The translations under genes were made by a program, and so were the position numbers. The notes below the pieces were generated by a model that made no database searches, was not told the DNA's origin, and was given only the letters and a program-made list of their open reading frames with translations. A DNA stretch of 64,000 bases, from the NCBI RefSeq assembly GCF_011386835.1, contig NW_027052982.1, positions 16,001 through 80,000 of the forward strand, read 5' to 3'. Shown piece after piece: positions 14,441 through 64,000 of this stretch (within the stretch, counting starts at the first letter, position 1; each line of letters opens with the position of its first letter). Source of the stretch: Chrysemys picta bellii. Taxonomy: Eukaryota > Chordata > Testudines > Emydidae.

Positions 14441-14597
14441 CTTATGTCCAGGCTAGTTTTAAAAGTCTGAAATAACGAGACTTCCCCGCTATCCTATAGC
14501 CCCCACCGCATCTCCCCAGGCATTTTTCCTGCTGCTCAGGGTAAATCGTCCTTTTCTGAATTTCACCCCAGTCCTCCTAGTTATACCCTCCGTGCTC

Positions 14598-15786: not shown

Positions 15787-15794
15787 TCCTAGAC

Positions 15795-16131
15795 CAATGG
15801 TGGGCAACCTGTGGCCCATCAGGGTAACCCGCTGGCAGGCCGCGAGACAGTGTTGGCATTGACCATCCACAGGCACAGCCACCCGCAGCTTCCAGTGGCT
15901 GCAGTTCTGCATTCCCGGCCAATGGGAGCCGCGGGAAGCAGCCCAGGCCGCAGGGATGTGCTGGCCGCCACTTCCCGCAGCTCCCATTGGCCAGGAATGG
16001 TGAACCACGACCACTGGGCGCTGCGGGCAGCCGTGCCTGTGGACGGTCAATGCAAAATTGTCTCACGACCCACCACTGGATTACCCTGACGAGCTGTGTG
16101 CGGCCCGCGGGCTGCAGGTTGCCCACCACAG
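15795..16131. mobile_element. hAT MITE with 8 bp TSD, copy 1
   Basis: Ends are CAATGGTGGGCAACCTG and CAGGTTGCCCACCACAG, a near-perfect inverted pair. They are flanked by TCCTAGAC at 15787-15794 and 16132-16139. The same element and target duplication occur in copy 2 (52200-52536), so the insertion predates the duplication. The 201-codon minus frame over it (15737-16342) is not a gene. Confidence 0.92.
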
Positions 16132-16139
16132 TCCTAGAC

Positions 16140-18372: not shown

Positions 18373-19872
18373 CCCTGCAATGCCCAAAATACTGTGGGGT
18401 TTGCTCATCAAGTAGGTTACTGCCAGTGCAATTGTGTTGTGAGATTGGGGATAGGGACGTGCTGAATCTGGGACACATAAGGGTAACAGCTCGAAAGTGC
18501 TGCTTGACCCAGTCCATGGAGTCCAGAGACATATAAGGGGTCAGTTTGACAGTGCTGATTGACCCGGTCTGCTCAGACTTGCTCTGTTAATGTATGTGTG
18601 GTGTGGGTGTGTTCATCCGGTTCTGGGGCTGGAGAAACCCAGCCCTGGGGAACCTAGGTCCTGCAGTATAGCTCCATTGGGAGGGGACTTGCAGAAGGGA
18701 GAAGTAGAGCTCCATATAAAAACACAAATGACACAAACAGTACACTGATAGAATTACAGAATCCCCTTCCCCAGAAGAGTAACCCGAATAAATGAGCATA
18801 CCCCAAAGTAATGGGCACATCTGGTAACAAGACCCAATCCACCCAGTCCTAATTGCAATCCATTCATAGTCAGCCATGTCAAGCAATGATCCCCAGCCCT
18901 ACATCTCCAGGGGACTGTGTATGGACATGCACTGCTGTCCTCTGTTGAACAAAGCACATCAGACCAGATTAAGTATCTATTAGATTTTATTGTTTTCCTC
19001 TGAATAGCGGAGGAGCTGCTCCTTTCCCTCCTCAAGGGCTGCATTTCTGGAGCTCAGGGTCATGGGCCCCATTTCCAACTGCCACAGGTAAGTGGGTGGC
19101 TAACGAGTGTGATGCGGCCTGTGTATCCATCCATGGAGCATTATGAATGGATCTGCAGAGCAGTGGGTTCGAGAGGAACTTGATTAATGGCACGAAAATG
19201 CCAAACAGTCTAAAACCAATAAAACTGATAAACCCTGGGATGAAATGTAGCAAAAGTCATTCCTATCCGCTCTGGGTTTCTGTCGGGATATTCAGAGGAC
19301 CAGAAAATGTAAGTGGGTGATTTAAATTATCTGCAGTTAATTTAACTCCATAGTTAATCCATGGACCACAAATCTTCAATTACTGGAAGAAACTCTTCCA
19401 CTCAAGAGAGAAAGGCGAATGACGCGGGTGGAACTGAGACTGGATTGATTATAGCCTGAGCAGGCGTATGTGTGACTTGGGTTTGAGGGCAACGGTCCTG
19501 AGGTTCGTTCTCATCATAAAAAATACCAGGCAGTTCGGCAAGATGATCTGTCCCCTGCGCAGGTCTAGAGTCGCCAAGGGTGCTGCAGAGCCGAGCAGAG
19601 CAGGATGCAGCAGCAGAGCTCAGCGGAGAGGGGCAGAGCAGAGGGCAGTTGCACGTCAGAACTGAGAGTTGTGTGTTCAAGCCCATCACCCTCCAGGTGC
19701 ATTGTTTGGACTGGATTAGCAGGGGTGTGGCAGGCCCCGGAGGATGGGTGATGCCTTGACACAGAGCTATGTTGATGGTGCCCGCTGGATGCTAGGGAGA
19801 TGGTGGAATTTGTGGGCCCCTTCTGTTAGTGGGCATGCTGGCAGGGTAGGATTCGATAGTATGGAAAACGGA
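18373..19872. other. LTR remainder, short minisatellite and unassigned sequence, copy 1
   Basis: Bases 18378-18480 probably continue LTR A. Bases 18470-18570 hold about two units of a 55-60 bp repeat (…AAAGTGCTGCTTGACC… and CATATAAGGGGTCAG); copy 2 has an extra unit. From 18600 to the left end of the virus-like element I see no supported gene. Confidence 0.4.
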
Positions 19873-20886
19873 AGTAGTATAAGGACCCTACCGTAAATCA
19901 AACCGTAACACCTCCCCTTGGCCCCTTAAACCCCATCCCTTGACCCCTTAAGCCGCGACTACCTGTCACCTGAAGTCCCACCCATGGGGGGGTATTACTT
20001 CTGGGTTCATGGCGGACAAATGACCGGAAGCAAAGTGTGTTATGTGACCTCTAAGAACTCCTCCCACTTCCCTCTACCAATCAGGAGGGGTTTCAGCCAC
20101 ATAGGACTGCCCCAAGAGCAGATTTGACCAATCGGGGGTGTCCCGGGGCAGGGTGACCCATCCGGAAGTGGATAATGTGACCTCTCTAAGAAGTCCTCCC
20201 ATCGCCCTCTACCAATCGTGATGGGTTTCGGTCGCATAGGACCGCCCCGAGAGCAGATTTGACCAATCGGGGGTGTTCCAGGGCGGGGTGACCCGCCCAG
20301 AAGAGGGTCGTGTGACCCCTTTAAAAACTCCTCCCAGCGCCCTCCGCCAATCAGAGTGCAGCACCATCACCCCATAAGTCCCAGCGCTGGGGCAGAAGAG
20401 GCCATCTTTTACCAAGAACGCGTGCTTTAGAAATCGTGGAAACATGGAGTCCTTCACCACCCCCGTCAGAACTTCAGACTTTATTTTAGCCCCGAGGGCC
20501 TTTGACCATCCGCGGAGAAAGTGCTACATCAGCGACAGTTCCGAGGAGGAGGAGGGAGCGACCGAGGGGAGCCCTTTGGCCCAGCCGTTGATGGATACGC
20601 CGGAACCCGAAACCCAACTGCTTGTGAGACACTCCGATGAGCGTGGTGGCCTCTTGTCGTCCATCCCCCTGGAGGAGGAAGGTGAACACAGCTCAGGGGA
20701 ATCACCAGAGGACAAGGTGAATGGAAAAGACGTCGCTCAGGTAAATGAATGATTAAGAAGTGACAGTTGATGATGGGGTGTAATGGGGTTAGGAACCAGC
20801 GGGTTGTGTAAATCTAAAAACAAGCAGTGGGGTGCTTACTTTCTTTTCTGAAAATCTCTCAACAGCTCGACGATGCCTTTCTAGAG
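19873..20886 (+). repeat. Left terminal inverted repeat, element 1
   Basis: About 1014 bp. It matches the reverse complement of 26446-27980. Homology includes the outer leader, the 135 bp promoter modules, all of exon 1, the intron, and the first 21 bases of exon 2, and stops at CTAGAG. Differences in length are mainly module number (3 here, 7 at the right). Confidence 0.88.
20050..20360 (+). promoter_or_regulatory. Tandem CCAAT-rich promoter modules, left TIR
   Basis: Three modules of about 135 bp start near 20058, 20193 and 20329. Each has an ACTCCTCCC box, a CCAATC box just after it, and most have a second GACCAATCGGGGG box. The module nearest the gene has TTTAAAA at 20320, about 120 bp upstream of the ATG, a likely TATA element. 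By design it resembles a viral enhancer-promoter array. Confidence 0.65.
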
Positions 20887-21012
20887 GCCTTTGAGAACTT
20901 ACACATCGGTAGCCCCGTGGGAGTAAATAGACATAAGCAAAAACAGCTGATGCATGATATGAGACACAGATATCAAGACGAAAATCTGGAAAAGGACAAA
21001 ATGGAAGAATGA
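20444..21012 (+). CDS. TIR gene A, spliced acidic early-type protein (copy 1)
   Basis: Exon 1 is 20444-20740 (99 codons) and ends at CTCAG|GTAAAT. Exon 2 is 20866-21012, after a TTCTTTTCTG tract and AACAG. Both junctions are phase 0, giving 147 residues. Exon 1 has a hydrophobic-acidic segment YISDSSEEEEGA, like a SUMO-interacting or CK2 site, and is rich in Pro, Ser and Glu. Exon 2 (DDAFLEAFENLHIG, then HKQKQLMHDMRHRYQDENLE) is charged and probably helical. AATAAA lies 72 bases past the stop. The gene is unbroken in both element copies. I do not recognise a family; position in the terminal repeat and composition suggest an early regulatory protein, which is inference. Confidence 0.7.
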
Positions 21013-21083
21013 ACCAGCTCAGACTTCCTTATGGAGTCCATTTTTACAGGCGGCTGTAAAAGGTCGTGTTAAACCAGGCGATT

Positions 21084-21089
21084 AATAAA
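21084..21089 (+). terminator. Polyadenylation signal for gene A
   Basis: AATAAA in the sequence ATTAATAAAACG, 72 bases past the stop codon. The next minus-strand gene (ATPase) converges on this site. The same signal is present in copy 2 near 57515. Confidence 0.7.
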
Positions 21090-21388
21090 ACGTATTTATT
21101 TCAATGTGTCAATGTGAATGTGTCCCCTTTCATATTTGTGTTAGTAAAAGACGGTACCAGTAAAAGTCATGTCTAGGCAGCTCTGTTAAAGAAAATCTAT
21201 CACACCCCCAGGGAAGTTGGGAGCTTGAGCGCTATTTCTGAGATGGCCGCTGCTAAATCGTCAGAGGCCGAACATAGTCTAACCCTCCTTTGCTGCGGGG
21301 ACGACTTCATAAGTAATTTTAAAAGGACCAGGTTTCTCTTTACACAGCTAGACATGTTTTCGGTCAGCAAACCCAGCTGTTACAAAGT

Positions 21389-22032
21389 TCATCTCTTTTT
21401 ATACCCGGCTGTTGTTCTTTTCAAAGTATAAACCATCAGCCGGTCTGGAGGGAAAACACCAGTTCTTAGTCTATAAGCTTCTGGTGTGGAAGCATTTAAA
21501 TCCACCACCAGGTAGCCATAAGGTCTTTTGGTAGCATCCTCAAAAGCTTCTAGAAAGAATTCAGCTTTGCAGGGGTACATTTGCCGAGCGAGCGTAGCGA
21601 TTTGTAATTTATCCCTGGGGTTTTTGCGTTTAGGTTAATCGTGTGACTCTTTCCCCCCTGACAAAATACGTTTTGAACTATAAACATAATGCTCAGGTTT
21701 CTGTGATGCACATACTTGGTAAAAGCTTTCTCGATTTCACAAGCAGAGTTCATCAGATCGTCTCTGATAATCATATTTACTTGACTGGTAGGAAACAAAC
21801 GGTCATCGTCAAAAGCATCAGGCAGCCCCTCCACAAAATTGATAAAGGGATATTTACAGAGCAGTTCTTTATACAGAGGTTGCCAACAACTGTAACACCA
21901 CACAACATTCTCAAGCAGAACAGACAGTGTTTGTTTGGCATTATCCAACACATTTTTTATAAAGTAACTTTTCCCGCAGTTGCTAGGCCCCGCGAGAATT
22001 GCAGAAAAGGGGTGTTTCCACCTCATATCCAT
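21389..22032 (-). pseudogene. Viral packaging ATPase (A32/FtsK-HerA type), frameshifted
   Basis: The first frame (22032-21550) has a Walker A motif GPSNCGKS at about residues 16-23 and a Walker B-like NMIIRDDL near residue 87, then the sensor-type HHRNLSIMFIVQN. This matches the genome-packaging ATPase of Polintons and adintoviruses, which threads DNA into capsids. The C-terminal part (MYPCKAEFFLEAFEDATKRP to RLRTGVFPP, down to 21389) lies in the -1 frame. The change of frame falls in an A5-C4 run at about 21618-21625. Length across both frames is about 214 codons, near the family norm. The identical break in copy 2 means it predates the duplication. Confidence 0.85.
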
Positions 22033-22154
22033 TTTTAAAAGCCCTAGGGCAGGTTTTAAACCCTTCTTCTAGGACCCTCTTGTTGTAAACGACTTTCAAG
22101 TGAGTTTAGGACCCTGCAGTGGTGAGCAGCTGGGCGGGGCGTTGGGAATCCCAG

Positions 22155-22229
22155 TGGGGCCTGATTCTGGCAGTTAGGTGCCTAAACCATCAGTTAGGCA
22201 CTTAAGCCCTTTGGTGAATCTGGCCCCCA
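22155..22229. mobile_element. Short palindromic MITE replacing the PolB catalytic region
   Basis: A compact inverted repeat (GGGGCCTGATTCTGG at the left; GAATCTGGCCCC at the right) lies exactly where the polymerase frame stops after Exo II. The same arrangement is found at about 58600-58675 in copy 2. Confidence 0.5.
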
Positions 22230-23935
22230 GAGGTACCCTGAGTGATCAGTTCTAGGCACATCTTTTCCTTCAGTAACTGTCTAACGATGAAGTACGCATC
22301 GTAACCTTTGGAACTGTGAGCTAGGAACGTGTAGTCCCGGAACTCTTTGCCAATAAAGGTCTCAACAAACATAGAAAGACACTCGTCGCCCTAAAATTCC
22401 CAGGATTTTCCCGGCTTTAGGGACATAACAAAAATGTAATTGGGCATGTGCAACCCAGTCTCCTGCGTGCATTCAAAATCATAAAAAAAGGTACTTTTCT
22501 CATGATTCGGGCTTTCTAAGGCTGTCCATAAAACACAGGTGACTGTCTACATCACCAGCGATCAAACCCTGACACTGCTTACATCGCCTCCCTTTACACC
22601 TGTGCCGCTTGTCCACATAAGACTGACACTTATCACACAAAGTTTTAGACAGGCATTCGACTTGTTTTTTCGATGCACAGTCGACGTGTCCGTCTAAACA
22701 CTCTTTGGATCGACAATACAGTCTACAGCTAGGACACTTCAGCTGCACGCCCATGCTGTCCAAGCACGTTACGCTCAAACAGAGGCGGCAACGATACCTG
22801 CAAGAGTGGTCGTGACTGTACGCCATGTGGCAAAACTCACAATAATTTTTCACACCAAACAACTTTTTCACATCCTGAATCCCATAGTAATGCTCATCGT
22901 GCAACAGGATGAAAAAAGTCTTGGGGTACACTGGGCCCCCCGTTTTAAAAAAGCCCCATCCACCTTTCGCCGCATACAGCACCACCTGTATATTGACTTC
23001 TAAATGCTGTTCAAACGTTGCTACGTCACTCAGCAGAACCTTTTTTTGATCTGACCACCCCAGTTTATCATGCAACTTTCTCGCCCCCGCTAACAATTCC
23101 GCATCCGTAGGTTTACGGTCGGACATAACGGCCAAGAGCCCAGCCGCAAAACACAGATTGGTACCGGTGTAAATCAGGTCTACTAAGCATTGTCTCTTTT
23201 TATGGAGGATTTGACTACCGCGGATAGAATTTAAAACTCTACGAGCCCCCCCATCCGTTTTTTACAACTGTCACAACGAGGCGCAACGTCCCATCGAGAT
23301 GCAACTCTCTATTGCTCTGTAGCAGCTTTGAGGCCTGAGTTAAGAACTCCTCAGCAGACAGCTCATCCCTAGTTCTTCTGACTGAAAACAAAGGGTTGGT
23401 TAAATTTCTGCTCTCTAAACGTAACTGAACATAATCATCATAATCACCATTAACGTCATCTAGAACTAACTGTATTCCCCTGTGTATGGCTTCAACAACC
23501 TGCTGAGCTGAATTTATTCCCTCAGGATTGACAAAACGAAATTCCTCACAATACACCGACCCCCCAAATCTAGGTAATTCACGTTGCCAACTTCTCACTC
23601 TCTCCATATACACCTCTGCATTTTCAGGGCTACTTGGGGGTTCCTCTACGGGACTGTCAGTGGCATCTTCTACATCAGATGCTATTTGAGAGTCAGACTC
23701 CGAGGGGCCTCCGTGAGGGTCATCAGAAGGAGACGGGGACCTTCTAGAGAGCCCTCTGGGGAATTTTCTAAACCAGACTCTGCCTGAGAGTCGGGTTCCA
23801 CCTCCCCATTTTCAGACAAGCCAGTTTGAGAGCCTCCAGTAGTGGGCATCTCTTTCTGTTTTTTTCCCTCATTATCTCTTTAGCCTTTTAAAAATTTTTT
23901 ACTGAGACCCTGGCCTGGAACTTTTTGGCCGCCAT
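22229..23935 (-). pseudogene. Protein-primed family B DNA polymerase, N-terminal and exonuclease part (truncated)
   Basis: Reading from 23935 down: a Ser/Glu-rich segment; a module (23613-23239) with DYVQLRLESRNLTNPLF and ELHLDGTLRLVVTVV, typical of Polinton PolB N-termini; then 23135-22500 with HDEHYYGIQDVKKLFG and Cys/His pairs (YCEFCHMAYSHDH, RCRLC) forming the zinc-finger-like region; then the proofreading exonuclease with Exo I FYDFECTQ (about 22470) and Exo II HSSKGYDAYF (about 22290). The usual Asn of Exo II is replaced by Ser. Frameshifts at about 23243 and 22490 and a stop at about 22400 break it. The palm with the DTD motif is absent. Confidence 0.82.
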
Positions 23936-24310
23936 TTCTTTGTCCACCAAAAGCTGTTCCCCCTTTTGTTTACACCTGAGCTGATGTGTACCCTTGAGGG
24001 TGCCCTTTTTACCCAGGCCCCTTTCCACGGCTAGTCACGCCTGCTCAGAGCCCCCTTTTGGAAAAATTGAAGCATTTTTCAAAAAGTCACCCGCCAGAGC
24101 TTTTGCATTTTTGACGTGGTTTCCAGCTCTCCTTTCTTTTAGACCCCTGAGGATATAGCAACCACCAGTATTCTGAACAAAGCCTCATATTTTCCCCAAA
24201 TCTTCATCAGTTTTCTGAATGAAGCATCATACTTTTCCCAAATACTAGAATATTGGGGAGCTGTGATGAGCTTATGGTGTTGGGAGAATGGTCTGTCAGT
24301 CCTTGGTTTT

Positions 24311-25751
24311 TTATTCACAACCCCTAGAGCGCGTATTCCGGGTTTGTGAATGTGTGTGATTTTGCTCAGTTTTCTCAGGGCTTGGTGTGGTGGTGGCCGC
24401 TGAGGAACTGGAGTTATGTTTGCGTGGTTGGTCTTTACCAGAGTCTTTTGTTTTGTCCTTGGGTTTGACGTATATGAGGTTTGGACTGCCCTGATGCTTC
24501 ATCTGCACCCTTGTGCTCAGGGCCGGCGCAACCCATTAGGCGACCTAGGTGGTCGCCTAGGGCGCTACAATTTGGGGGTGGCGACCGCGGTGGTATTTCA
24601 GCGGCGGGACCTTCCGCCGCCTCTGTGGGGGGCGACATTTCGGGGCGGGACCTTCCGCCGTCTAGGGCGGCAGAAAAACTGGCGGCGCTCCTGCTTGTGC
24701 TGTTTTGTGTTAGCGTTGTTAAAGGTCTCAAAGCAGATTGCTGGTTCTTTGGCGGTTCTGGTGGAGGTGTCCCTGTAGCTTCGACTACAGCATTGTCAGG
24801 AAAGCTGCCCGTGCCTATGAGGGGGGAGAAAAGACATTTTACGAAACTGAACTTTACCATCTTTCTCACCCACACCTATGGATTTACTTAAAATACAAAA
24901 CCTCATGAAACAACCAAACAAATAAGCAAAATATATTTACTGGGCTTCGTCCATCCATCAGTCATTGATGCTGGTGAATTTTCCTTTTCAGCTGTCTCTT
25001 TCCTTTTTCTTTTGAGCTTGTTTGCCCTCTCGTGTTTTGACCGTACTGTGAAGCAAACAACATTATAAAACACATGAAACTGTCTTGTAAACTTAAAAAA
25101 ATAAAATATTCGTTAGGGTGTTTTTCTATTTGAAAAGTCACAGCTTTAAAACAAAATCATCCATTTCAGGCTGCACAACAAACACAGGTTTCGAGTTTAT
25201 TTCTAACACTTTAAAAAACAAACCCACAAACATTTTTAAAAAAGACATCTCATTTTGCAAAATAAAAACCAAACTGCTTTTAAAATCCATTGAAAATACT
25301 TTTCAATAAACCCACATGCATTTAAAAGGCACATGGTTGTTCTGTCCACCACCACCACCACCCCTGCCATGTGTGTTTGGGCCTTCAGGTTAAAGAACAA
25401 GCAAAAATGTTAAGTTAGGATTACCCCCAAATCCCTATACAACCAGTGTAATACCTGAAGGTTTTTTTTTTTTAATTTAACAGTATTAAGCACATCTATA
25501 GTTAAAATGGTTTTTACCTTGGCCTGGTGGTGAAATGCAGCTTAAAGTTCCTGGTTCCATGCTAACCAGATCACACTGCAATAAAGCCAGGCACCATTAT
25601 TTACTAAGACAGCATGGCCAAAGAATGGCATTATAGAATATCTATTTTCAGAGTTCAAAACAGGGCGCATACCTCCTCTTGCAGTCCAGCAGCAATTCAA
25701 GAGCGTTTCTGTTGGAAGAGACAGGCTCCAAGCTCCCTGAGGTTTTTATAC
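24311..25751 (-). CDS. Internal spliced transcription unit with two alternative 3' exons (copy 1)
   Basis: Minus strand. A TATAAAA (25750-25744) and CCAAT (near 25790) precede a leader exon ending at 25673 (GAG|GTATGC). Exon 2 (25575-25518) begins after TTTATTGCAG and holds the first ATG at 25560, encoding 14 codons plus one base (MEPGTLSC…). Two later acceptors fit this phase. One at 25045 opens a basic exon (NKLKRKRKE) with a hydrophobic end (YILLICLVV), stop at 24903. The other at 24814 opens a Pro/Ser-rich exon ending at 24311, interrupted by a hAT element at 24518-24693. I do not recognise either product. A basic nuclear or membrane-tail protein is only inference. Confidence 0.5.
24518..24693. 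mobile_element. hAT MITE inserted in a viral exon, copy 1
   Basis: Starts CAGGGCCGGCGC and ends GGCGGCGCTCCTG, with the 8 bp duplication CTTGTGCT (24510-24517 and 24694-24701). It disrupts the 3' exon of the internal transcription unit. The same insertion with the same duplication is in copy 2. Confidence 0.9.
24894..25517. other. Intron and A/T-rich sequence of the internal unit
   Basis: Between the leader exons and the two 3' exons. Long T and A runs and no coding frame apart from the exon at 25045-24903. Confidence 0.35.
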
Positions 25752-25988
25752 CATCCTAACTCTTTGTTTCAAAATAGTCAGCAGGTTGATTGGCTCACCC
25801 CTCCCTAGCATTCCCTTTTGTGGGCTGGGCTGGGGGAATAAGTTGTCTGCACAACTGGGCTGCTTTTCTTTTCTTTTCTTTTTTTTTTCTTTTAGTTCAA
25901 ATACATTTTTCTGTAGGGCCTCTTACAGTGCCCATTCCAAGTGGGGGCCCTTTGCAGATCTCAATGAATGTCTTGGGGTTGTTTTTTA

Positions 25989-26899
25989 TCAAGGTCCCCC
26001 CGGCGCTAAATGTTCTTGGGTTAGGCACAGACATTGCATAGCATAACCTATGGCAGTAACAGTGTTTAATAGGATTTCCAAACACAGCTCAGCACACAGG
26101 CCCCGGATCTTGCAGTTTATATCCACTGAAGTCCAAGTCACACAGTCATGGTGCCGTTGGGCTGGCGTATCTATGACACAGCCCTCACAATCTTCAAAAA
26201 GCTTTTCCCTAAGGCAGTGATTAAGGACAGCATAAACAGCAACGCGTACAATAGTCCGCAGGACTTTTTTTACGCTCACGACGTGGCACTGGCTCAGTTA
26301 GTTCCATGCCAAGCCTCTTCCTAAACTCCTCATAGCCGTCATCCTCGGAGTCCTCTTCAACAATTTGTATCGGCGTTGAGCAGAACCAAGGTGGGCCCAG
26401 TTCATCTTTGCTGCTTGATGCAACGCTGTCCAGGGCCTCCTGCTCCTCTAGAAAGGCATCGTCGAGCTGTCGAGAGATTTTCAGAAAAGAAACAGTGTAA
26501 ATTCCCACTGCTTGTTTTTAAATTTACACAAACCCCCTGCCCCCTGGTTCCTAACCCCATTACACCCCATCATCAACCATTACTTCTTAATAATTCATTT
26601 ACCTGAGCGACGTCTTTTCCATTCATCTTGTCCTCCGGTGACTCCCCAGAGCTGTGTTTGCCTTCCTCCTACAGGGGGGTGGACGACAAGAGGCCACCAC
26701 GCTCATCGGGGTGTCTCACAAACAGTTGGGATTCGGGTTCCGGCGTATCCATCAACGTCTGGGCCAAAGGGCCCTCCTCGGTCGCTCCCTCCTCCTCCTC
26801 GGAACTGTCGCTGATGTAGCGCTTTCTCCACGGATGGTCAAAGGGCTTCGGGGCTAAAACAAAGTCCGAAGTTCTCACAGGGGTGGTGAAGGAGTCCAT
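25989..26899 (-). pseudogene. TIR gene B, spliced; shares exon 1 with gene A, unique Cys-rich exon 2 (copy 1)
   Basis: Exon 1 is 26899-26603, the inverted twin of gene A exon 1, with the same GTAAAT donor. Exon 2 starts at 26466 after CTCTCGACAG. The first seven residues agree with gene A (LDDAFLE), then it is unrelated: an acidic stretch (IQIVEEDSEDDGYEEF), and, after a +1 frame change in an A7 run at 26269-26275, a Cys/His cluster (DCEGCVIDTPAQRHHDC) and a hydrophobic end. Exon 1 here has a nonsense TAG at 26671-26669; copy 2 does not. The Cys/His pattern suggests metal binding. No family is assigned, and no LxCxE motif is present. Confidence 0.6.
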
Positions 26900-27980
26900 G
26901 TTTCCACGATTTCTAAAGCACGCGTTCCTGGTAAAAGATGGCCTCTTCTGCCCCAGCACTGGGACTTGTGGGGTGATGGTGCTGCACTCTGATTGGCAGA
27001 GGGCACTGGGAGGAGTTTTTAGAGGGGTCACATGACCCTCTTCTGGGCGGGTCACCCCACCCTAGAACACCCCCGATTGGTCAAATCTGCTCTCGGGGCG
27101 GTCCTATGCGACTGAAACCCATCGCGATTGGTAGAGGGTGGTGGGAGGAGTTCTTAGAGAGGTCACATTATCCACTTCCGGACGGGTCACCCCACCCTGG
27201 AACATCCCCGATTGGTCAAATCTGCTCTCGGAGCAGTCCTATGCAACCAAAACCCATCGTGATTGGTAGAGGGCGGTGGGAGGAGTTCTTAGAGGGGTCA
27301 CATGAACCCTTTCCGGATGGGTCACCCCGCCCTGGAACTCCCCCATATTGGTCAAATCTCCTCTCGGGGCAGGCCTATGCGGGCGAAAGCCATCCTGATT
27401 GGTGGAGGGCGGTGGGAGGACTTCTTAGAGGGGTAAAATGAACCCTTTCCAGATGGGTCACCCCGCCCTGGAACTCCCCCATATTGGTCAAATCTCCTCT
27501 TCGGGCAGGCCTATGCGGGCGAAACCCATCCTGCTTGGTAGAGGGTGGTGGGAGTAGTTCTTAGAGGGGTCACATGAACCCTTTCCGGATGGGTCACCCT
27601 GCCCTGGAACTCCCCCATATTGGTCAAATCTCCTCTCGGGGCAGGCCTATGCGGGCGAAAGCCATCCTGATTGGTAGAGGGCGGTGGGAGTAGTTCTTAG
27701 AGGGGTAACATGAACCCTTTCCGGATGGGTCACCGTGCCCTGGAACTCCCCCATATTGGTCAAATCTCCTCTCGGGGCAGGCCTATGCGGGCGAAACCCA
27801 TCCTGATTGTTAGAGGGCAGTGGGAGGAGTTCTTATAGAGGTCACATGACACACTTTGCTTCTGGTCATGTGTCCGCCTTGACCCCGGAAGTAATACACT
27901 CATGGATGGGACTTCCGGTGACAGGTGGTCGGGGCTTAAGGGGTCAAGGGGCAGGATTGATGGTAGGGCTTTATACTACT
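26446..27980 (-). repeat. Right terminal inverted repeat, element 1
   Basis: About 1535 bp, inverted relative to 19873-20886. The outer end is AGTAGTATAAAGCCC on the minus strand. It includes seven promoter modules, exon 1, the intron, and 21 bases of exon 2. The outer end abuts a SPATA31-like coding exon. Confidence 0.88.
26985..27850 (-). promoter_or_regulatory. Seven tandem 135 bp promoter modules, right TIR
   Basis: ATTGG-type boxes followed by a GGTGGGAGGAG-like box recur near 26990, 27125, 27260, 27397, 27532, 27669 and 27805, a period close to 136 bp. The outer four are more alike (CCCATATTGGTCAAATC in each) than the inner ones, suggesting recent array growth from the outer side. Confidence 0.75.
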
Positions 27981-29900
27981 ACAACACACCCTTGGAGGCC
28001 CTTGCCTTCCAAAAGGGTGGCTTTGTAAATTTAGTATCCGGTCTTCTTGAACGAGAGTCCTTGGACATTTGGGACTTCACTGTGTTTTGAAGTTTGGCGA
28101 AGGTTTTCTTGAGACACATTAAGATCCGTTTGAGAACTGGATCTTTGCTCCTTGAAGGGGATGGTGTCCTAGCTCTGGAGGCCTTTGCTGGCTTTGGAGG
28201 AGAACTGTCAGGACTCCCAGTTGCTTTCTCCCCGGCTTGCGAAAGCCCTGTTGTACTCGTAGCAATGGACACCATCTTTGGTTGCTTGGTGGGAGCCATT
28301 TTCCCCATTCCATCCTGCGTCTTGCTCCCGTCTGCTGGAAGGAGCCACACCACTGGCATCTTGTTGAGGTTGGATGACGCTGAGGAGTCTCCTGGAGTCC
28401 ATTGCTGTGGAATTCTGGGCAAGTCAGCACCTGCAGAGCCAGCTGGTCTCTTCCGTCGAACCTTATCGCACTTCTTGCAAACTCTGATTGGTGACTGGTC
28501 CCTGGAGAGCTTTGAATTCACAGTTCCATCGAACCCGTGTGGAGCCGTGATGTCTCGAAGACCATGCAGCTCAGCAGATAGTTGGTCTGGCGTTTCTTGC
28601 CCTTTCGATGCTGCTGCCCCAGGATGCGGAGTCACGATGCCCCCGCACGTAGGGTGAGAGAGCCGGCCTCTCTCCTCTGGGGAAGGAGACATGAACCTCC
28701 TCAGGGAATCCTGGATCCTCATGGGCAGTTCCGATCTTTGCTGCACTTGCATCTTTGTAATGTGGACCTCCAGCTGCTTTTTAACGTCCCTCCCAAGGAA
28801 GAGCAGCTCCTCAAGGATGGGAACCACCTCAACCTCGGGCTTTGCCTTCAGGGAAGACAGCTTGGGAACCGGGGGTAGGAAAGCCCGCCGGGATTTCCAC
28901 AGGGCATTCGGCAAACCCCACTCCTGCTGCAGCTTCTTCCGCTGCGTGTGCCAGTCCAACTTCTCCCTGACCTCATTGAGCAGGAAATCGGTCTCCATCT
29001 CACTGAACTCCACCCCAGCTCCCCTGGCTGGGACGGCGTGAGGCAGCTTTGCCGGTGGCTCTGGGTCCAGGGTGAGCAGCCCCCGCTGCATGACGAGATG
29101 GTCACGCTTTATTTGGAGTTCGATGGGGTGGGCAGGCTGTTGTCCCATCGTTGGCAATTCCGCTGTGCTGGGCTTGCCTGGCTCCCTAGGGGGGCAGAGT
29201 GGCCTAGGCAGGGCAGTCTCTCTCACGAGGGGAGCATTTCTGTGAGACTCTCTCACCATCTTAGGAAACGCCTGCATTTGGATCTCCGAGCATTTCTGAG
29301 CCAAGTGATCCTGCAGCTTGACCACTGCCGTGGGCACAAGCGTGGCCAGGATGACATCAGGGGACGCCATGATCCCGTGGGCCTTTTGAGGCAGGGATCC
29401 CAAAGGGCAGGAACCACATGGTTCCTGGGTCTCCTGGGCACGCTGAGGGCTGGTGTCGGATCTCAGGGGTTTTGTTTGTGGAGCCGGAGGCAGAAGAGCC
29501 ATGTGGGGTTTCTGGGGGGTGATCTGCTCTCGCCGGTCTTGTCTGCTGTGGGCAGGAGGCCTGGGGAGAGGCTGGGCTTGGATGGGATGAGTGGATCCTT
29601 CCCAGCCCGCGACAGGCATGATCTCCCTTGTGCGGCAGAGGGGCTCTGACCGAGTCACGGAGGCTTCTCCCAGGGAAAAGGAGCTGTGACTCCAGAGGGA
29701 AGAGGGGATGGATTCCATAGAGGAGAACTGGCTGGCCGCAGATGTCATCACACTCGGCCTGTGGGAGAGAGCAGACAGGGACAGATGGGACATGGCCCTG
29801 CTGAGCAAAGGCGGGGCTTGGGCACAGCCTTCCAACTGTAGTGCAATGGGGCAGTGCCTAGGCATGCATGGCACACCACACTCTGACACAAGGACATCAA
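27979..29900 (-). CDS. SPATA31-like: SPATA31-like protein, large exon
   Basis: An uninterrupted 636-codon frame. Three copies of a helix module occur: IELQIKRDHLVMQRGL (about residue 258), LDWHTQRKKLQQEWGLP followed by AFLPPVP (about 310-330), and LEVHITKMQVQQRSELP followed by RRFMSPSP (about 375-400). This H-x6-Q-x2-WGLP…F-PP pattern is the hallmark of the SPATA31/FAM205 family, which acts in spermatogenesis in mammals. The frame continues upstream without a clear ATG, as expected for an internal or last exon. The stop TAG (27981-27979) is formed where the virus-like TIR begins. Upstream exons at 30825-37079 supply the N-terminus. Confidence 0.65.
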
Positions 29901-46795: not shown

Positions 46796-46799
46796 GACA

Positions 46800-56301: not shown

Positions 56302-57317
56302 AGTAGTATAAGGACCCTACCGTCAATCAAACCGTAACACCTCCCCTTGGCCCCTTAAACCCCATCCCTTGACCCCTTAAGCCGCGACCAACTGTCACCT
56401 GAAGTCCCACCCATGGGGGGGTATTACTTCTGGGTTCATGGCGGACACATGACCGGAAGCAAATTGTGTCATGTGACCCCTCTAAGAACTCCTCCCACTT
56501 CCCTCTACCAATCAGGAGGGGTTTCAGCCACATAGGACTGCCCCGAGAGCAGATTTGACCAATCGGGGGTGTCCCGGGGCGGGTTGACCCATCCGGAAGT
56601 GGATAATGTGACCTCTCTAAGAACTCCTCCCACCACCCTCTACCAATCGTGATGGGCTTCGGTCGCATAGGACCGCCCCGAGAGCAGATTTGACCAATCG
56701 GGGGTGTTCCAGGGCGGGGTGACCCGCCCAAAAGAGGGTCGTGTGACCCCTTTAAAAACTCCTCCCAGCGCCCTCTGCCAATCAGAGTGCAGCACCATCA
56801 CCCCATAAGTCCCAGCGCCGGGGCAGAAGAGGCCATCTTTTACCAAGAACGCGTGCTTTAGAAATCGTGGAAACATGGAGTCCTTCACCACCCTCGTGAG
56901 AACTTCGGACTTTGTTTTAGCCCCGAGGGCCTTTGACCATCCGCGGAGAAAGCGCTACATCAGCGACAGTTCCGAGGAGGAGGAGGGAGCGACCGAGGAG
57001 GGCCCTTTGGCCCAGCCGTTGATGGATACGCCGGAACCCGAAACCCAACTGCTTGTGAGACACCCCGATGAGCGTGGTGGCCTCTTGTCGTCCACACCCA
57101 TGGAGGAGGAAGGCGAACACAGCTCGGGGGAGTCACCGGAGGACAAGGTGAATGGAAAAGACGTCGCTCAGGTAAATGAATGATTAAGAAGTGACAGTTG
57201 ATGATGGGGTGTAATGGGATTAGGAACCAGCGGGTTGTGTAAATCTAAAAACAAGCAGTGGGATGCTTACTTTCTTTTCTGAAAATCTCTCAACAGCTCG
57301 ACGATGCCTTTCTAGAG
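56302..57317 (+). repeat. Left terminal inverted repeat, element 2
   Basis: Counterpart of 19873-20886, with three promoter modules (near 56485, 56620 and 56760) and a TTTAAAA near 56751. Confidence 0.85.
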
Positions 57318-57443
57318 GCCTTTGAGAACTTACACATCGGTAGCCCCGTGGGAGTAAACAGACATAAACAAAAACAGCTGATGCACGATATGAGACACAG
57401 ATATCAAGACGAAAATCTGGAAAAGGACAAAATGGAAGAATGA
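56875..57443 (+). CDS. TIR gene A, spliced (copy 2)
   Basis: Exon 1 is 56875-57171 and exon 2 is 57297-57443; splice sites and phase are as in copy 1. Exon 2 differs from copy 1 by three bases, all synonymous (Asn, Lys and His codons). Exon 1 differs by several amino acids; here residues such as RKRYISDSS and EEGPLAQP agree with the right-arm exons, so copy 1 holds the derived versions. Product unrecognised. Confidence 0.7.
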
Positions 57444-57833
57444 ACCCGCTCAGACTTCCTTATGGAGTCCATTTTTACAGGCGTCTGTAAAAGGTCGTGT
57501 TAAACCAGGCGATTAATAAAACGTATTTATTTAAATGTGTCAATATGAATGTGTCCCCTTTCATATTTGTCTTAGTAAAAGACGGTACCAGTAAAAGTCA
57601 TGTCTAGGCAGTTCTGTTAAAGAAAATCTATTACACCCCCAGGGAAGTTGGGAGCTTGAGCGCTATTTCTGAGATGGCCGCTACTAAATCGTCAGAGGCC
57701 GAACATAGTCTAGCCCTCCTTTGCTGCGGGGACGATTTGCTAAGTAATTTTAAAAGGACCAGGTTTCTCTTTACACAGCTAGACATGTTTTCGGTCAGCA
57801 ACCCCAGCTGTTACAAAGAGGCCTGCCAATAGT

Positions 57834-58477
57834 TCATCTCTTTTTATACCCGGCTGTTGTTCTTTTCAAAGTATAAACCACCAGCCAGTCTGGAGGGAAA
57901 ACACCAGTTCTTAGTCTATAAGCTTCTGGTGTGGAAGCATTTAAATCCACCACCAGGTGGCCATAAGGTCTTTTGGTAGCATCCTCAAAAGCTTCTAGAA
58001 AGAATTCAGCTTTGCAGGGGTACATTTGCCGAGCGAGCGTAGCGATTTGTAATTTATCCCTGGGGTTTTTGCGTTTAGGTTAATCGTGTGACTCTTTTCC
58101 CCCTGACAAAATACGTTTTGAACTATAAACATAATGCTCAGGTTTCTGTGATGCACATACTTGGTAAAAGCTTTCTCGATTTCACAAGCAGAGTTCATCG
58201 GATCGTCTCTGATAATCATATTTACTTGATTGGTAGGAAACAAACGGTCATCGTCAAAAGCATCAGGCAGCCCCTCCACAAAATTGATAAAGGGATATTT
58301 ACAGAGCAGTTCTTTATACAGAGGTTGCCAACTACTGTAACACCACACAACATTCTCAAGCATAACAGACAGTGTTTGTTTGGCATTATCCAACACATTT
58401 TTTATAAAGTAACTTTTCCCGCAGTTGCTAGGCCCCGCGAGAATTGCAGAAAAGGGGTGTTTCCACCTCGTATCCAT
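57834..58477 (-). pseudogene. Viral packaging ATPase, frameshifted (copy 2)
   Basis: Same as 21389-22032, with Walker A GPSNCGKS and Walker B NMIIRDDP, where the residue after the acidic pair has changed from Leu to Pro. The A5-C4 frame change is at about 58063-58070. Confidence 0.83.
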
Positions 58478-58671
58478 TTTTAAAAGCCGTAGGGCAGGGT
58501 TTTAAACCCTTCTTCTAGGACCCTCTTGTTGTAAACGACTTTCAAGTGAGTTTAGGACCCTGCAGTGGTGAGCAGCAGCTGGGCGGGGGGTTGGGAATCC
58601 CAGTGGGGCCTGATTCTGGCAGTTAGGTGCCTAAACCATCAGTTAGGCACTTAAGCCCTTTGGTGAATCTG

Positions 58672-60231
58672 GCCCCAAGAGGTACCCTGAGTGATCAGTT
58701 CTAGGCACATCTTTTCCTTCAGTAACTGTCTAACGATGAAGTACGCATCGTAACCTTTGGAACTGTGCGCTAGGAACGTGTAGTCCCGGAACTCTTTGCC
58801 AGTAAAGGTCTCAACAAACATAGAAAGACACTCGTCGCCCTAAAATTCCCAGGATTTTCCCTGCTTTAGGGACATAACAAAAATGTAATTGGGCATGTGC
58901 AACCCAGTCTCCTGCGTGCATTCAAAATCATAAAAAAAGGTACTTTTCTGATGATTCGGGCTTTCTAAGGCTGTCCATAAAACACAGGTGACTGTCTACA
59001 TCACCAGCCATCAAACCCTGACACTGCTTACAGCGCCTCCCTTTACACCTGTGCCGCTTGTCCACATAAGACTGACACTTATCACACAAAGTTTTAGACA
59101 GGCATTCGACTTGTTTTTTCGATGCACAGTCGACGTGTCCGTCTAAACACTCTTTGGCTCGACAATACAGTCTACAGCTAGGACACCTCAGCTGCACGCC
59201 CATGCTGTCCAAGCACGTTACGCTCAAACAGAGGCGGCAACGATACCTATAAGAGTGGTCGTGACTGTACGCCATGTGGCAAAACTCACAATAATTTTTC
59301 ACAGCAAACAACTTTTTCACATCCTGAATCCCATAGTAATGCTCATCGTGCAACAGGATGAAAAAAGTCTTGGGGTACACTGGGCCCCCCGTTTTAAAAA
59401 AGCCCCATCCACCTTTTGCCGCATACAGCACCACCCGTATATTGACTCCTAAATGCTGTTCAAACGTTGCTACGTCACTGAGCAGAACCTTTTTTTGATC
59501 TGACCACCCCAGTTTCTCCTGCAACTTTCTCGCCCCCGCTAACAATTCCGCATCCGTAGGTTTACGGTCGGACATAACGGCGAAGAGCCCACCCACAAAA
59601 CACAGATTGGTACCGGTGTAAATCAGGTCTACTAAGCATTGTCTCTTTTTATGGAGGATTTGACTACCGCGGATAGAATTTAAAACTCTACGAGCGCCCC
59701 CATCCGTTTTTTACAACTGTCACAATGAGGCGCAACGTCCCATCGAGATGAAACTCTCTATTGCTTTATAGCAGCTTTGAGGCCTGAGTTAAGAAATCCT
59801 CAGCAGAATTTATTCACTCAGGATTGACAAAACGAAATTCCTCACAATACACCGACCCCCCAAATCTAGGTAATTCACGTTGCCAACTTCTCACTCTCTC
59901 CATATACACCTCTGCATTTTCAGGGTTACTTGGGGGTTCCTCTATGGGACCGTCAGCGGCATCTTCTACATCAGATGCTATTTGAGAGTCAGACTCCGAG
60001 GGGCCTCCGTAAGGGTTATTAGGAGCAGACGAGGACCTTCTAGAGAGCCCTCTGGGGAATTTTCTAAACCAGACTCTGCCTGAGAGTCGGGTTCCACCTC
60101 CCCATTTTCAGACAAGCCAGTTTGAGAGCCTCCAGTAGGGGGCATCTCTTTTTGTTTTTTTTCCTCATTACCTCTTTAGCCTTTTTAAAAATTTTTACTG
60201 AGACCCTGGCCTGGAACTTTTTGGCCGCCAT
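58672..60231 (-). pseudogene. Family B DNA polymerase N-terminal part (copy 2)
   Basis: Same modules as copy 1: zinc-finger-like region at 59596-58928, Exo I FYDFECTQ and Exo II HSSKGYD after a frameshift. An internal deletion of about 165 bp near 59805 (joined within CAGCA) removes most of the N-terminal module that copy 1 keeps at 23345-23515. Confidence 0.78.
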
Positions 60232-60605
60232 TTGTTTGTCCACCAAGAGCTTTCCCCCTTTTGTTTACACCTGAGCTGACGTGTACCCTTGAGTGTGCCC
60301 TTTTTACCCAGACCCCTTTCCACGGCTAGTCACGCCTGCTCAGAGCCCCCTTTTGGAAAAATTGAAGCATTTTTCAAAAAGTCACCTGCCAGAGCTTTTG
60401 CATTTTTGACGTGGTTTCCACCTCTCCTTTCTTTTAGACCCCTGAGGATATAGCAGCCACCAGTATTCTGAACAAAGCCTCATATTTTCCCCAAATCTTC
60501 ATCAGTTTTCTGAATGAAGCATCATACCTTTCCCAAATACTAGAATATGGGGGAGCTGGGATGAGCTTATGGTGTTGGGAGAATGGTTTGTCAGTCCTTG
60601 GCTTT

Positions 60606-62040
60606 TTATTCACAACCCCTAGAGCGCGTATTCCGGGTTTGTGAATGTGTGTGTTTTTGCTCAGTTTTCTCAGGGCTTGGTGTGGTGGTGGCCGCTGAGG
60701 AACTGGAGTTGTGTTTGCGTGGTTGGTCTTTACCAGAGTCTTTTGTTTTGTCCTTGGGTTTGACGTATATGAGGTTTGGACTGCCCTGATGCTTCATCTG
60801 CACCCTTGTGCTCAGGGCCGGCGCAACCCATTAGGCGACCTAGGTGGTCGCCTAGGGCGCTACAATTTGGGGGCGGCGACCGCGGCGGTATTTCAGCGGC
60901 AGGACCTTCTGCCGCCTCTGTGGGGGGGGCGGCATTTCGGGGCGGGACCTTCCGCCGCTTAGGGCGGCAGAAAAGCTGGCGGCGCTCCTGCTTGTGCTGT
61001 TTTGTGTTGACGTTGTTAAAGGTCTCAATGCAGATTCCTGGTTCTTTGGCGGTTCTGGTGGAGGTGTCTCTGTAGCTTCGACTACAGCATTGTCAGGAAA
61101 GCTGCCCGTGCCTATGAGGGGGGAGAAAAGACATTTTACGAAACTGAACTTTACCATCTTTCTCACCCACACCTATGGATTTACTTAAAATACAAAACCT
61201 CATGAAACAACCAAACAAATAAGCAAAATATATTTACTGGGCTTTGTCCATCCATCAGTCATTGATGCTGGTGAATTTTCCTTTTCAGCTGTCTCTTTCC
61301 TTTTTCTTTTGAGCTTGTTTGCCCACTCATGTTTTGACCGTACTGTGAAGCAAACAACATTATAAAACACATGAAACTGTCTTGTAAACTTAAAAAAATA
61401 AAATATTCGTTAGGGTGTTTTTCTATTTGAAAAGTCACAGCTTTAAAACAAAATCATCCACTTCAGGCTGTACAACAAACACAGGTTTTGAGTTTATTTC
61501 TACCATTTTAAAAAACAAACCCACAAACATTTTTTAAAAAAACATCTCATTTTGCAAAATAAAAACCAAACTGCTTTTAAAATCCATTGAAAATACTTTT
61601 CAATAAACCCACATGCATTTAAAAGGCACATGGTTGTTCTGTCCACCACCACCCCGCCCCCACCCCTGCCATGTGTGTTTGGGCCTTCAGGTTAAAGAAC
61701 AAGCAAAAATGTTAAGTTAGGATTACCCCCAAATCCCTATACAACCTGTGCAATACCTGAAGGTTTTTTTTTTTTTTAATTTAACAGTATTAAGCACAAA
61801 TATAGTTAAAATGGTTTTTACCTTGGCCTGGTGGTGAAATGCAGCTTAAAGTTCCTGGTTCCGTGCTAAACAGATCACACTGCAATAAAGCCAGGCACCA
61901 TTATTTACTAAGACAGCATGGCCAAAGAATGGCATTATAGAATATCTATTTTCAGAGTTGAAAACAGGGCGCATACCTCCTCTTGCAGTCCAGCAGCAAT
62001 TCAAGAGCGTTTCTGTTGGAAGAGACAGGCTCCAAGCTCA
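60606..62040 (-). pseudogene. Internal spliced unit, promoter and start lost (copy 2)
   Basis: Splice sites are kept: exon 2 at 61879-61822, alternative exons from 61342 (to 61200) and from 61111 (to 60606). However, a 61 bp deletion has removed the TATA box, and the exon 2 start ATG is ACG at 61864-61862. This copy is probably silent. Confidence 0.5.
60813..60990. mobile_element. hAT MITE in viral exon, copy 2
   Basis: Same element and duplication CTTGTGCT (60805-60812 and 60991-60998) as at 24518-24693. Confidence 0.9.
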
Positions 62041-62216
62041 CCCCTCCCTAGCATTCCCTTTTGTGGTCTGGGCTGGGGGAATAAGTTGTCTGCACAACTG
62101 GGCTGCTTTTCTTTTCTTTTAGTTCAAATATATTTTTCTGTAGGGCCTCTTACAGTGCCCATTCCAAGTGGGGGCCCTTTGCAGATCTCAGTGAATGTCT
62201 TGGGACTTGTTTTTTA

Positions 62217-63131
62217 TCAAGGTCCCCCCGGCGCCAAATGTTCTTGGGTTAGGCACAGACATTGCATAGCATAACCTATAGCAATAACAGTGTTTAATAG
62301 GATTTCCAAACACAGCTCAGCACACAGGCCCCGGAGCTTGCAGTTTATAGCCACTGAAGTCCAAGTCACACAGTCATGGTGCCGTTGGGCTGGCGTATCT
62401 ATGACACAGCCGTCACAATCTTCAAAAAGCTTTTCCCTAAGGCAGTGATTAAGGACAGCATAAACAGCAACGCGCACAATAGTCCGCAGGACTTTTTTTA
62501 TGCTCACGACGTGGCACTGGCTCAGTTAGTTCCATGCCAAGCCTCCTCCTAAACTCCTCATAGCCGTCATCCTCGGAGTCCTCTTCAACAATTTGTATCG
62601 GCGTTGAGCAGAACCAAGGTGGGCCCAGTTCATCTTCGCTGCTTGATGCAACGCTGTCCAGGGCCTCCTGCTCCTCTAGAAAGGCATCATCGAGCTGTCG
62701 AGAGATTTTCAGAAAAGAAACAGTGTAAATTCCCACTGCTTGTTTTTAAATTTACACAAACCCCCCGCCCCCCCCCCGATTCCTAACCCCATTACACCCC
62801 ATCATCAACCATCACTTCTTAATAATTCATTTACCTGAGCGACGTCTTGTCCATTCACCTTGTGCTCCGGTGACTCCCCTGAGCTGTGTCTGCCTTCCTC
62901 CTCCAGGGGGATGGACGACAAGAGGCCACCACACTCATCGGGGTGTCTCCCAAGCAGTTGGGTTTCAGGTTCCGGCGTATCCATCAACGGCTGGGCCAAA
63001 GGGCCCTCCTCGGTCGCTCCCTCCTCCTCCTTGGAACTGTCGCTGATGTAGCGCTTTCTCTGCGGATGGTCAAAGGCCCTCGGGGCTAAAACAGAGTCCG
63101 AAGTTCTCACTGGGGTGGTGAAGGAGTCCAT
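62217..63131 (-). pseudogene. TIR gene B, spliced (copy 2)
   Basis: Exon 1 is 63131-62835 and is fully open here. Exon 2 starts at 62694 with LDDAFLEEQEAL, then the acidic stretch and, after the same A7 frame change (about 62497-62503), the Cys/His cluster (DCDGCVIDTPAQRHHDC). If the A7 shift is not bypassed, the protein ends about 80 codons into exon 2. Confidence 0.6.
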
Positions 63132-64000
63132 GTTTCCACGATTTCTAAAGCACGCGTTCCTGGTAAAAGATGGCCTCTTCTGCCCCAGCACTGGAACTTG
63201 TGGGGTGATGGTGCTGCACTCTGATTGGCAGAGGGCACTGGGAGGAGTTTTTAGAGGGGTCACATGACCCTCTTCTGGGCGGGTCACCCCGCCCTAGAAC
63301 ACCCCCAATTGGTCAAATCTGCTCTCGGGGCGGTCCTATACGACCGAAACCCATCGCGATTGGTAGAGGGTGGTGGGAAGAGTTCTTAGAGAGGTCACAT
63401 TATCCACTTCCGGACGGGTCACCCCAACCTGGAACATCCCCGATTGGTCAAATCTGCTCTCGGAGCAGTCCTATGCAACCGAAACCCATCATGATTGGTA
63501 GAGGGCGGTGGGAGGAGTTCTTAGAGGGGTCACATTAACACTTTCCGGATGGGTCACCCCGCCCTGGAACTCCCCCATATTGGTCAAATCTCCTCTCGGG
63601 GCTGGCGTATGCAGGCGAAACCCATCCTGATTGGTAGAGGGCAGTGGGAGGAGTTCTTAGAGGGGTCACATGAACCCTTTCCGGATGGGTCACCCCGCCC
63701 TGGAACTCCCCCATATTGGTCAAATCTCCTCTCGGGGCAGGCCTATGCGGACCAAACCCCTCCTGCTTGGTAGAGGGCGGTGGGAGTAGTTCTTAGAGGG
63801 GTCACATGAACCCTTTCCGGATGGGTCACCCTGCCCTGGAACTCCCCCATATTGGTCAAATCTCCTCTCGGGGCAGGCCTATGCGGGCGAAACCCCTCCT
63901 GCTTGGTAGAGGGCGGTGGGAGTAGTTCTTAGAGGAATCACATGAACCCTTTCCGGATGGGTCACCCTGCCCTGGAACTCCCCCATATTGGTCAAATCTC
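62680..64000 (-). repeat. Right terminal inverted repeat, element 2 (incomplete)
   Basis: Inverted relative to 56302-57317. At least six promoter modules are visible (near 63229, 63360, 63495, 63631, 63767 and 63903) before the window ends. Confidence 0.85.

What the first reader, a model, noticed from the sequence alone, without database searches (positions are those of the whole stretch)
19873..27980. Terminal inverted repeats that contain a shared first exon: one N-terminus, two different proteins
Seen directly: both long repeats of the virus-like element include promoter modules, a 99-codon exon 1, a conserved GTAAAT donor, the intron, an AACAG/GACAG acceptor and the first seven codons of exon 2. 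Repeat homology stops exactly there (CTAGAG), and the two unique second exons begin: helical and charged on the left (gene A), acidic and Cys/His-rich on the right (gene B). The terminal repeat works as a portable promoter plus N-terminal cassette. I know of no described Polinton or adintovirus layout of this kind, though I cannot search.
Basis: partly seen in the sequence, partly recalled or inferred. Interest (0 to 1): 0.88.

Follow-up and report, generated by a model that had tools for sequence, protein, structure and literature searches.

The report
Virus-like element with duplicated first exon
A decayed virus-like element in an animal genome carries the same promoter-like region and first protein-coding segment in both of its mirror-image ends, so that two different genes would begin with the same protein start; the layout is real in the DNA and has a precedent in a chicken herpesvirus, but it has not been shown to be expressed.

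Summary
The element (19873-27980) begins AGTAGT, ends ACTACT and has long inverted repeats (1014 bp left, 1535 bp right). Both carry tandem promoter-like modules, a 99-codon ORF, a GTAAAT donor, an intron, an acceptor and 21 nt of exon 2; homology then stops. Exon 2 is unique at each end: 48 codons left, 81 right. New: the locus is duplicated in the window with its left host flank (copy 2 at 56302-64000), so copy 2 is not an independent insertion. Right exon 1 has a stop in copy 1 and is open in copy 2. It is a remnant: 8.1 kb, broken replication genes, no target-site duplication. Before the duplication exon 1 was more alike between ends than neighbouring repeat DNA (2 of 297 against 17 of 268 fixed differences), but synonymous differences are missing too, which points to homogenisation, not protein-level selection. 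Best reading: fossil Maverick/adintovirus-like provirus with a shared promoter-plus-first-exon cassette. Marek's disease virus pp38/pp24 is a close precedent. No independent relative or RNA evidence could be obtained.

The parts
19873..20886 (+). left terminal inverted repeat; starts AGTAGT
26446..27980 (-). right terminal inverted repeat; ends ACTACT on +
20042..20354 (+). left promoter-like tandem modules, period 135, 2.3 copies, with CCAAT boxes
26989..27857 (-). right promoter-like tandem modules, period 136, 6.4 copies, with CCAAT boxes
20444..20740 (+). exon 1 of gene A, 99 codons, open
20741..20865 (+). predicted intron of gene A, GTAAAT...AACAG
   Evidence: splicing not tested
20866..21012 (+). 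exon 2 of gene A, 48 codons plus stop; first 7 codons shared with gene B
21084..21089 (+). AATAAA poly(A) signal downstream of gene A; an opposite-strand signal lies at 21095
26603..26899 (-). exon 1 of gene B, 99 codons, broken by an in-frame stop in this copy
26467..26602 (-). predicted intron of gene B, GTAAAT...GACAG
   Evidence: splicing not tested
26221..26466 (-). exon 2 of gene B, 81 codons plus stop, acidic, 6 Cys
25989..26297 (-). Cys/His-rich ORF overlapping the end of gene B in another frame, open in both copies of the locus
21550..22068 (-). remnant of a P-loop (packaging-ATPase-like) gene; identity by recalled motifs and a sub-threshold Pox_A32 match (E 0.068)
22202..23811 (-). 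broken pieces that look like the N-terminal part of a protein-primed PolB (exonuclease-type motifs recalled, no library match above cut-off)
24690..25560 (-). predicted third spliced gene C (coding exons 25560-25518, 25045-24941, 24814 to about 24690; TATA 25752, CCAAT 25795)
56302..64000 (+). second copy of the element, part of a segmental duplication, cut by the window end

Best explanation
This is the shortened, decayed remnant of a Maverick/beta-adintovirus-like provirus, later copied with host DNA by a segmental duplication. In the virus that left it, the long terminal repeats were not only replication ends: each carried a promoter and the first coding exon, intron and acceptor of an accessory (probably early regulatory) gene. 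Transcription ran inwards from both ends; each transcript was spliced into an end-specific second exon, giving two proteins with the same 106-residue acidic N-terminus (99 from exon 1 plus 7) and different C-termini. The repeat boundary lies 21 nt inside exon 2, so the whole cassette, splice sites included, is repeated, and exchange between the ends would keep the two N-termini alike. Shown: anatomy, repeat boundaries, open frames, duplication, decay. Inferred: splicing, expression, viral function, regulatory role.
For: Repeat arms and sharp boundary. (AGT)2//(ACT)2 ends as in vertebrate Mavericks (sequence). PolB-like then ATPase-like pieces point from the right end towards the centre, the published module orientation, with accessory regions outside the modules. 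Splice signals in 4 of 4 copies; exon 2 frames at both ends open in the phase set by exon 1. CCAAT boxes upstream of both exons: 5 in 571 nt left, 11 in 1081 nt right, none in reverse orientation. Poly(A) signal after gene A. Exon 1 nearly identical between ends before the duplication (2 of 297 fixed differences) while noncoding repeat DNA was not (17 of 268; Fisher p 2e-4; 17 promoter and 15 intron gap columns set aside; p 0.003 if five neighbouring intron differences beside a gap count as one event, 0.005 if dropped). Right exon 1 of copy 2 is open, so the stop in copy 1 most simply came after the duplication. A further in-phase spliced gene model in the same element suggests introns in its accessory genes.
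Against: No RNA evidence and no independent element. The likeness of exon 1 between ends is not a protein-selection signature: both fixed differences change the amino acid, and 5.5 synonymous ones were expected at the noncoding rate (3.9-4.2 with the intron cluster dropped or counted once) but none seen (P 0.004, or 0.015-0.019). Single-copy changes in exon 1 look neutral: 23 nonsynonymous, 7 synonymous, expected nonsynonymous fraction 0.71, p 0.69. No 6-bp target-site duplication (AACGGA against ACAACA), so the two ends may not come from one insertion. No capsid or integrase match among the 18 element pieces scanned with Pfam; PolB and ATPase pieces gave no match above cut-off.
Confidence: 0.62

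Rival explanations
1. Repeat overreach without function: the terminal repeat of one ancestor grew inwards (terminal copying or unequal exchange) and took in the 5' half of one real spliced gene; at the other end this left a partial gene fused by chance to a downstream frame. Only one of A and B was ever a working gene.
For: Repeat boundaries falling inside genes are known by-products of repeat expansion (general knowledge). The left end has 2 module copies and the right 6 in each locus copy, so the repeats were changing. Gene A shows a weak sign of constraint between locus copies (10 synonymous, 8 nonsynonymous, p 0.013, pooled row among seven coding comparisons printed, uncorrected); gene B does not. 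Single-copy changes in exon 1: left 7 nonsynonymous and 6 synonymous, right 16 and 1.
Against: The boundary lies just past a usable acceptor, and both second exons are open in the right phase (0.088 and 0.013 by chance). Gene B exon 2 is the longer and less chance-like of the two.
Confidence: 0.18
2. Chimera of two insertions: the left end comes from one Maverick copy and the right end from another, joined by deletion (or inversion) between them; A and B are end genes of different variants and the pair never sat in one virus.
For: No target-site duplication; 8.1 kb against the published 12.7-24.6 kb of intact elements; the ends differ in module number, and in the outermost repeat the right copy differs from both left copies at 21 of 150 aligned sites, which includes later change in that one copy, 67 gap columns (some of them at segment ends) set aside.
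Against: Both ends carry the same end motif in inverted orientation; exon 1 was nearly identical between ends. Within one family each parent would be expected to carry the repeat at both ends, so the design would survive.
Confidence: 0.15
3. Exon 1 is a self-contained, unspliced small gene present twice in the repeat (102 codons left); the exon 2 frames are coincidence.
For: Unspliced, the left ORF stops three codons after the donor.
Against: Consensus-like donor and acceptor, in-phase exon 2 frames at both ends, seven shared codons directly after the acceptor, and an intron that is the most divergent inner part of the repeat (11 of 125 fixed differences plus indels; five of the 11 lie together beside a gap).
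Confidence: 0.05

Closest known systems
Marek's disease virus pp38 / pp24
   Same: [quoted passage not shown] pp38/pp24 act in lytic infection (PMC8398467, abstract and passages; PMC10284419, passages and a supplementary-figure legend).
   Different: Herpesvirus with internal and terminal long repeats; the passages I saw do not describe the shared part as a separate upstream exon with the acceptor inside the repeat. Here the element is Maverick-like and the shared part is a whole exon plus 7 codons.
Vertebrate Mavericks / Polintons (Barreat and Katzourakis 2021, PMC8097293; section 7 and passages seen)
   Same: (AGT)2//(ACT)2 ends, long inverted repeats (46-1447 bp there), accessory regions outside two core modules that point to the centre.
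   Different: The paper reports no introns in genes of intact elements and, in what I read, no coding exons in the repeats; here accessory genes look spliced, the right repeat is 1535 bp, there is no TSD and the element is 8.1 kb.
Adintoviruses, beta clade (Terrapene box turtle reference)
   Same: The beta-clade reference comes from a turtle; adintovirus accessory genes called oncoids are defined by short motifs (passages seen).
   Different: No LxCxE motif in exon 1, A exon 2, B exon 2 or the overlapping ORF of copy 1. The founding paper was not held, so whether its reference has exon 1 in the repeat is unknown.
HSV US1/US12 pair (recalled)
   Same: Recalled: 5' exon and intron in the short repeats shared by two different unique-region genes. 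The passages I saw of one HSV review (PMC7824580) did not state this.
   Different: Recalled: the shared exon there is noncoding.

Membership tests
vertebrate Maverick (intact, as described in PMC8097293) | 5'-(AGT)2//(ACT)2-3' or another listed end motif | tested here: met
   AGTAGT from 19873 and ACTACT ending at 27980; definition
vertebrate Maverick (intact, as described in PMC8097293) | terminal inverted repeats | tested here: met
vertebrate Maverick (intact, as described in PMC8097293) | 6-bp target-site duplication | tested here: not met
   AACGGA left, ACAACA right; no exact 6-mer shared between 19850-19885 and 27965-28000
vertebrate Maverick (intact, as described in PMC8097293) | eight intronless core genes, 12.7-24.6 kb | tested here: not met
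   8108 bp; only broken PolB-like and ATPase-like pieces seen; no capsid, protease or integrase match among 18 element ORFs or pieces scanned with Pfam (one search lists 54 stop-to-stop ORFs) or 9 with NCBIfam. Hence described as a Maverick-derived remnant, not an intact member
adintovirus | PolB with N-terminal OTU-like domain, hexon recognisable by BLASTp, rve integrase with chromodomain | tested here: inconclusive
   PolB-N ORF: no library match and AlphaFold model at mean pLDDT 32.9, unusable; hexon and integrase not found in the pieces scanned
pp38/pp24-type repeat-junction gene pair (works like) | shared promoter and N-terminus in an inverted repeat, different C-termini in unique sequence | tested here: met
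   DNA layout only
pp38/pp24-type repeat-junction gene pair (works like) | both proteins expressed | not testable with these tools
   no RNA or protein data

The most novel reading that the evidence does not exclude
A Maverick/adintovirus lineage evolved terminal repeats that double as a promoter plus first-exon cassette: because exchange between the ends homogenises the repeat, two regulators at opposite ends of the genome are forced to keep one common N-terminal domain while their C-termini evolve freely. As far as my searches reach it would be the first coding exon described inside Maverick repeats.
Probability: 0.4. Interest if true: 0.68.

Novelty: new variant of a known kind. Interest (0 to 1): 0.52.

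Why it matters
If intact relatives share the layout, it shows that the ends of Mavericks can carry coding exons as well as replication signals, and that accessory genes of these elements are spliced although core genes are reported intronless. It would give a second, unrelated virus group with the repeat-junction gene-pair design of Marek's disease virus, and a testable rule: repeat exchange should keep the N-termini in step. For annotation it means that plain ORF calling on such elements would miss both genes.

Tried and rejected
Independent insertion of copy 2: rejected, because the alignment runs from host DNA through the left border (18470-23358 with 54899-59807). Protein-level selection as cause of exon 1 likeness: not favoured, no synonymous fixed differences where 3.9-5.5 were expected. 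Domestication of gene A in the host: only a weak hint (p 0.013, uncorrected, pooled gene A row among seven coding comparisons printed; CpG weight of 8 assumed; the ATPase comparison was gapped and not counted). LxCxE-type oncoid: no motif in four pieces of copy 1. Identity of the Cys/His-rich ORF: Pfam at E up to 5 none, PHROGs and NCBIfam none, solved structures six weak partial matches (best E 0.029, adenylyl cyclase), AlphaFold mean pLDDT 50.7, unusable, so no fold search was run. Weak sub-threshold Pfam matches of other pieces (RNA_helicase, Pox_A32, MetW, DUF4910, DUF1513, LMP1; E 0.03-0.5) and one in NCBIfam were not used, apart from Pox_A32 as a hint. ATPase ORF against solved structures: none. 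Relatives: IMG/VR scans with four window ORFs confirmed none; two PolB-motif patterns gave 0 and 6 contigs; of the six, three were checked for inverted repeats of 40 nt or more (none), one of these was read for ORFs, which look phage-like to me; three were not looked at. GTDB scans, two, confirmed none. Papers: nine searches; 6, 10, 19, 26, 52, 74 bear on Mavericks/adintoviruses and repeats, 31, 50, 64 on herpesvirus and adenovirus repeats.
Full report
What was checked. The finding says that both long repeats of a virus-like element carry promoter modules, the same first exon, an intron and the start of exon 2, and that two different second exons follow. The inverted-repeat scan finds the arms (20048-20803 with 26540-27295, 92% over 756 nt; 20840-20887 with 26445-26492, 98%). 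Aligning the ends gives 71 of 74 identical positions before the start codon, 274 of 297 in exon 1, 115 of 123 in the intron with 15 gap columns, 21 of 21 in the first seven codons of exon 2, and loss of homology within a base of CTAGAG. The left repeat is 1014 bp (19873-20886), the right 1535 bp (26446-27980). The length difference lies mainly in a tandem module of about 136 bp: 2.3 copies left, 6.4 right. CCAAT occurs 5 times in the left and 11 times in the right repeat upstream of exon 1, never in the reverse orientation.

The two genes. Gene A: exon 1 20444-20740, exon 2 20866-21012, 147 codons in all, followed by AATAAA at 21084 and an opposite-strand signal at 21095. Gene B: exon 1 26899-26603, exon 2 26466-26221 on the minus strand, 180 codons in all, with an in-frame stop in exon 1 of this copy. 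Under a dinucleotide Markov model the chance that the frame is open as long as seen is 0.014 for exon 1, 0.088 for the unique part of A exon 2 and 0.013 for that of B exon 2; exon 1 was picked after the fact, the second exons were not free to choose a frame. Exon 1 is acidic (pI 4.41), as is B exon 2 (pI 4.3, six Cys, no His).

The locus is duplicated. The window holds a second copy of the element at 56302-64000, cut by the window end, inside a segmental duplication of host DNA: 18470-23358 aligns with 54899-59807 through the left border at 96.9%. The copies are therefore paralogs, not two insertions. They give four copies of exon 1, called L1, L2, R1, R2. R2 is open, so the stop in R1 is most simply younger than the duplication.

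What the four copies say. In ungapped columns, differences fixed between left and right ends (taken as older than the duplication) number 6 of 143 in the proximal promoter/5' region, 2 of 297 in exon 1, 11 of 125 in the intron and 0 of 21 in the shared part of exon 2; 17 and 15 gap columns in promoter and intron were set aside. Exon 1 against the noncoding parts: Fisher p 2e-4. Five of the 11 intron differences lie together beside a gap; counted as one event the p is 0.003, dropped 0.005. The longest interval without fixed differences, 235 nt, lies in exon 1 (permutation p 0.001). In the outermost repeat, where only three copies are in the window, the right copy differs from both left copies at 21 of 150 aligned sites; 67 gap columns, some at segment ends, were set aside. 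But both fixed differences in exon 1 change the amino acid, and at the noncoding rate 5.5 synonymous ones were expected (P of none 0.004; 3.9-4.2 and P 0.015-0.019 with the cluster treated as above). So the likeness of the two exons is better explained by exchange between the ends than by selection on the protein. A gene-conversion tract after insertion would look the same as exchange in the virus. Changes seen in one copy only are as expected without selection: 23 nonsynonymous, 7 synonymous, expected nonsynonymous fraction 0.71, p 0.69; by end, left 7 and 6, right 16 and 1. Locus copy against locus copy, gene A has 10 synonymous and 8 nonsynonymous changes (p 0.013, uncorrected; pooled row among seven coding comparisons printed); the gene B exons, the overlapping ORF and the PolB-N ORF show no such excess.

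What kind of element. The ends read AGTAGT...ACTACT, the commonest end motif of vertebrate Mavericks (PMC8097293, section 7 read in full, other passages by term search). [quoted passage not shown] it also says that 96% of the loci are degraded. Here, minus-strand pieces with a P-loop (21550-22068) and with recalled PolB exonuclease motifs and Cys-rich segments (22202-23811) point from the right end to the centre. None gave a library match above its cut-off, so their identity rests on recalled motifs, order and orientation. No integrase, protease or capsid match appeared among the 18 element pieces scanned with Pfam. There is no target-site duplication. I therefore call it a Maverick-derived remnant and not an intact member. 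The host ORF at the right border is SPATA31/FAM75-like (Pfam PF14650, E 8e-16).

Splicing in this lineage. A third gene model on the minus strand between gene B and the PolB pieces has coding exons 25560-25518, 25045-24941 and 24814 to about 24690 (its 3' end was set by hand), with GT/AG boundaries at the two introns, compatible phases, a TATA box at 25752 and CCAAT at 25795. It fits the view that accessory genes of this element were spliced. It too is a prediction.

Precedent and novelty. In Marek's disease virus pp38 and pp24 share promoter and 65 N-terminal residues and lie at opposite junctions of the long unique region with its inverted repeats (PMC8398467, abstract and passages; PMC10284419, passages and a supplementary-figure legend). 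The design is thus known, in another virus group. My searches showed no description for Mavericks or adintoviruses (seen as listings; passages of PMC11071296 and PMC10812802), but the founding adintovirus paper was not held, so absence from print is not established.

Verdict. The anatomy is real and unlikely to be chance; the shared-exon reading is the best explanation (0.62). Function in the living virus is inferred, the present copies are decaying, and the missing target-site duplication leaves a chimera of two insertions open. No independent element could be examined: the genome search did not complete (12 tries), and scans of the other collections confirmed no relative.

Noticed in passing
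9581-27768 with 45195-64000: Large direct segmental duplication, about 93-98% identical by main block (short edge blocks 86-89%), offset 36.4 kb at the element's left border and about 36.2 kb further right, containing the element and host flank.
   Followed up: yes
27979-29889 (-): SPATA31/FAM75-like ORF of 636 codons runs into the right end of the element; its stop codon is made of one host base and the first two bases of the element.
   Followed up: partly
24690-25560 (-): Predicted three-exon spliced gene with its own TATA and CCAAT boxes and a basic stretch that looks like a nuclear localisation signal.
   Followed up: partly
25989-26297 (-): Cys/His-rich ORF overlapping the end of gene B in another frame, open in both copies of the locus.
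   Followed up: partly
21200-21379 (-): Small ORF after the ATPase-like pieces, roughly where the published Maverick map has gene pm; identity not tested.
   Followed up: no
20444-20740 and copies: Exon 1 differs more between locus copies (15 of 297 left pair, 20 of 297 right pair) than host flank (3.1-3.8%); 9 of the 30 single-copy changes are CpG transitions.
   Followed up: partly
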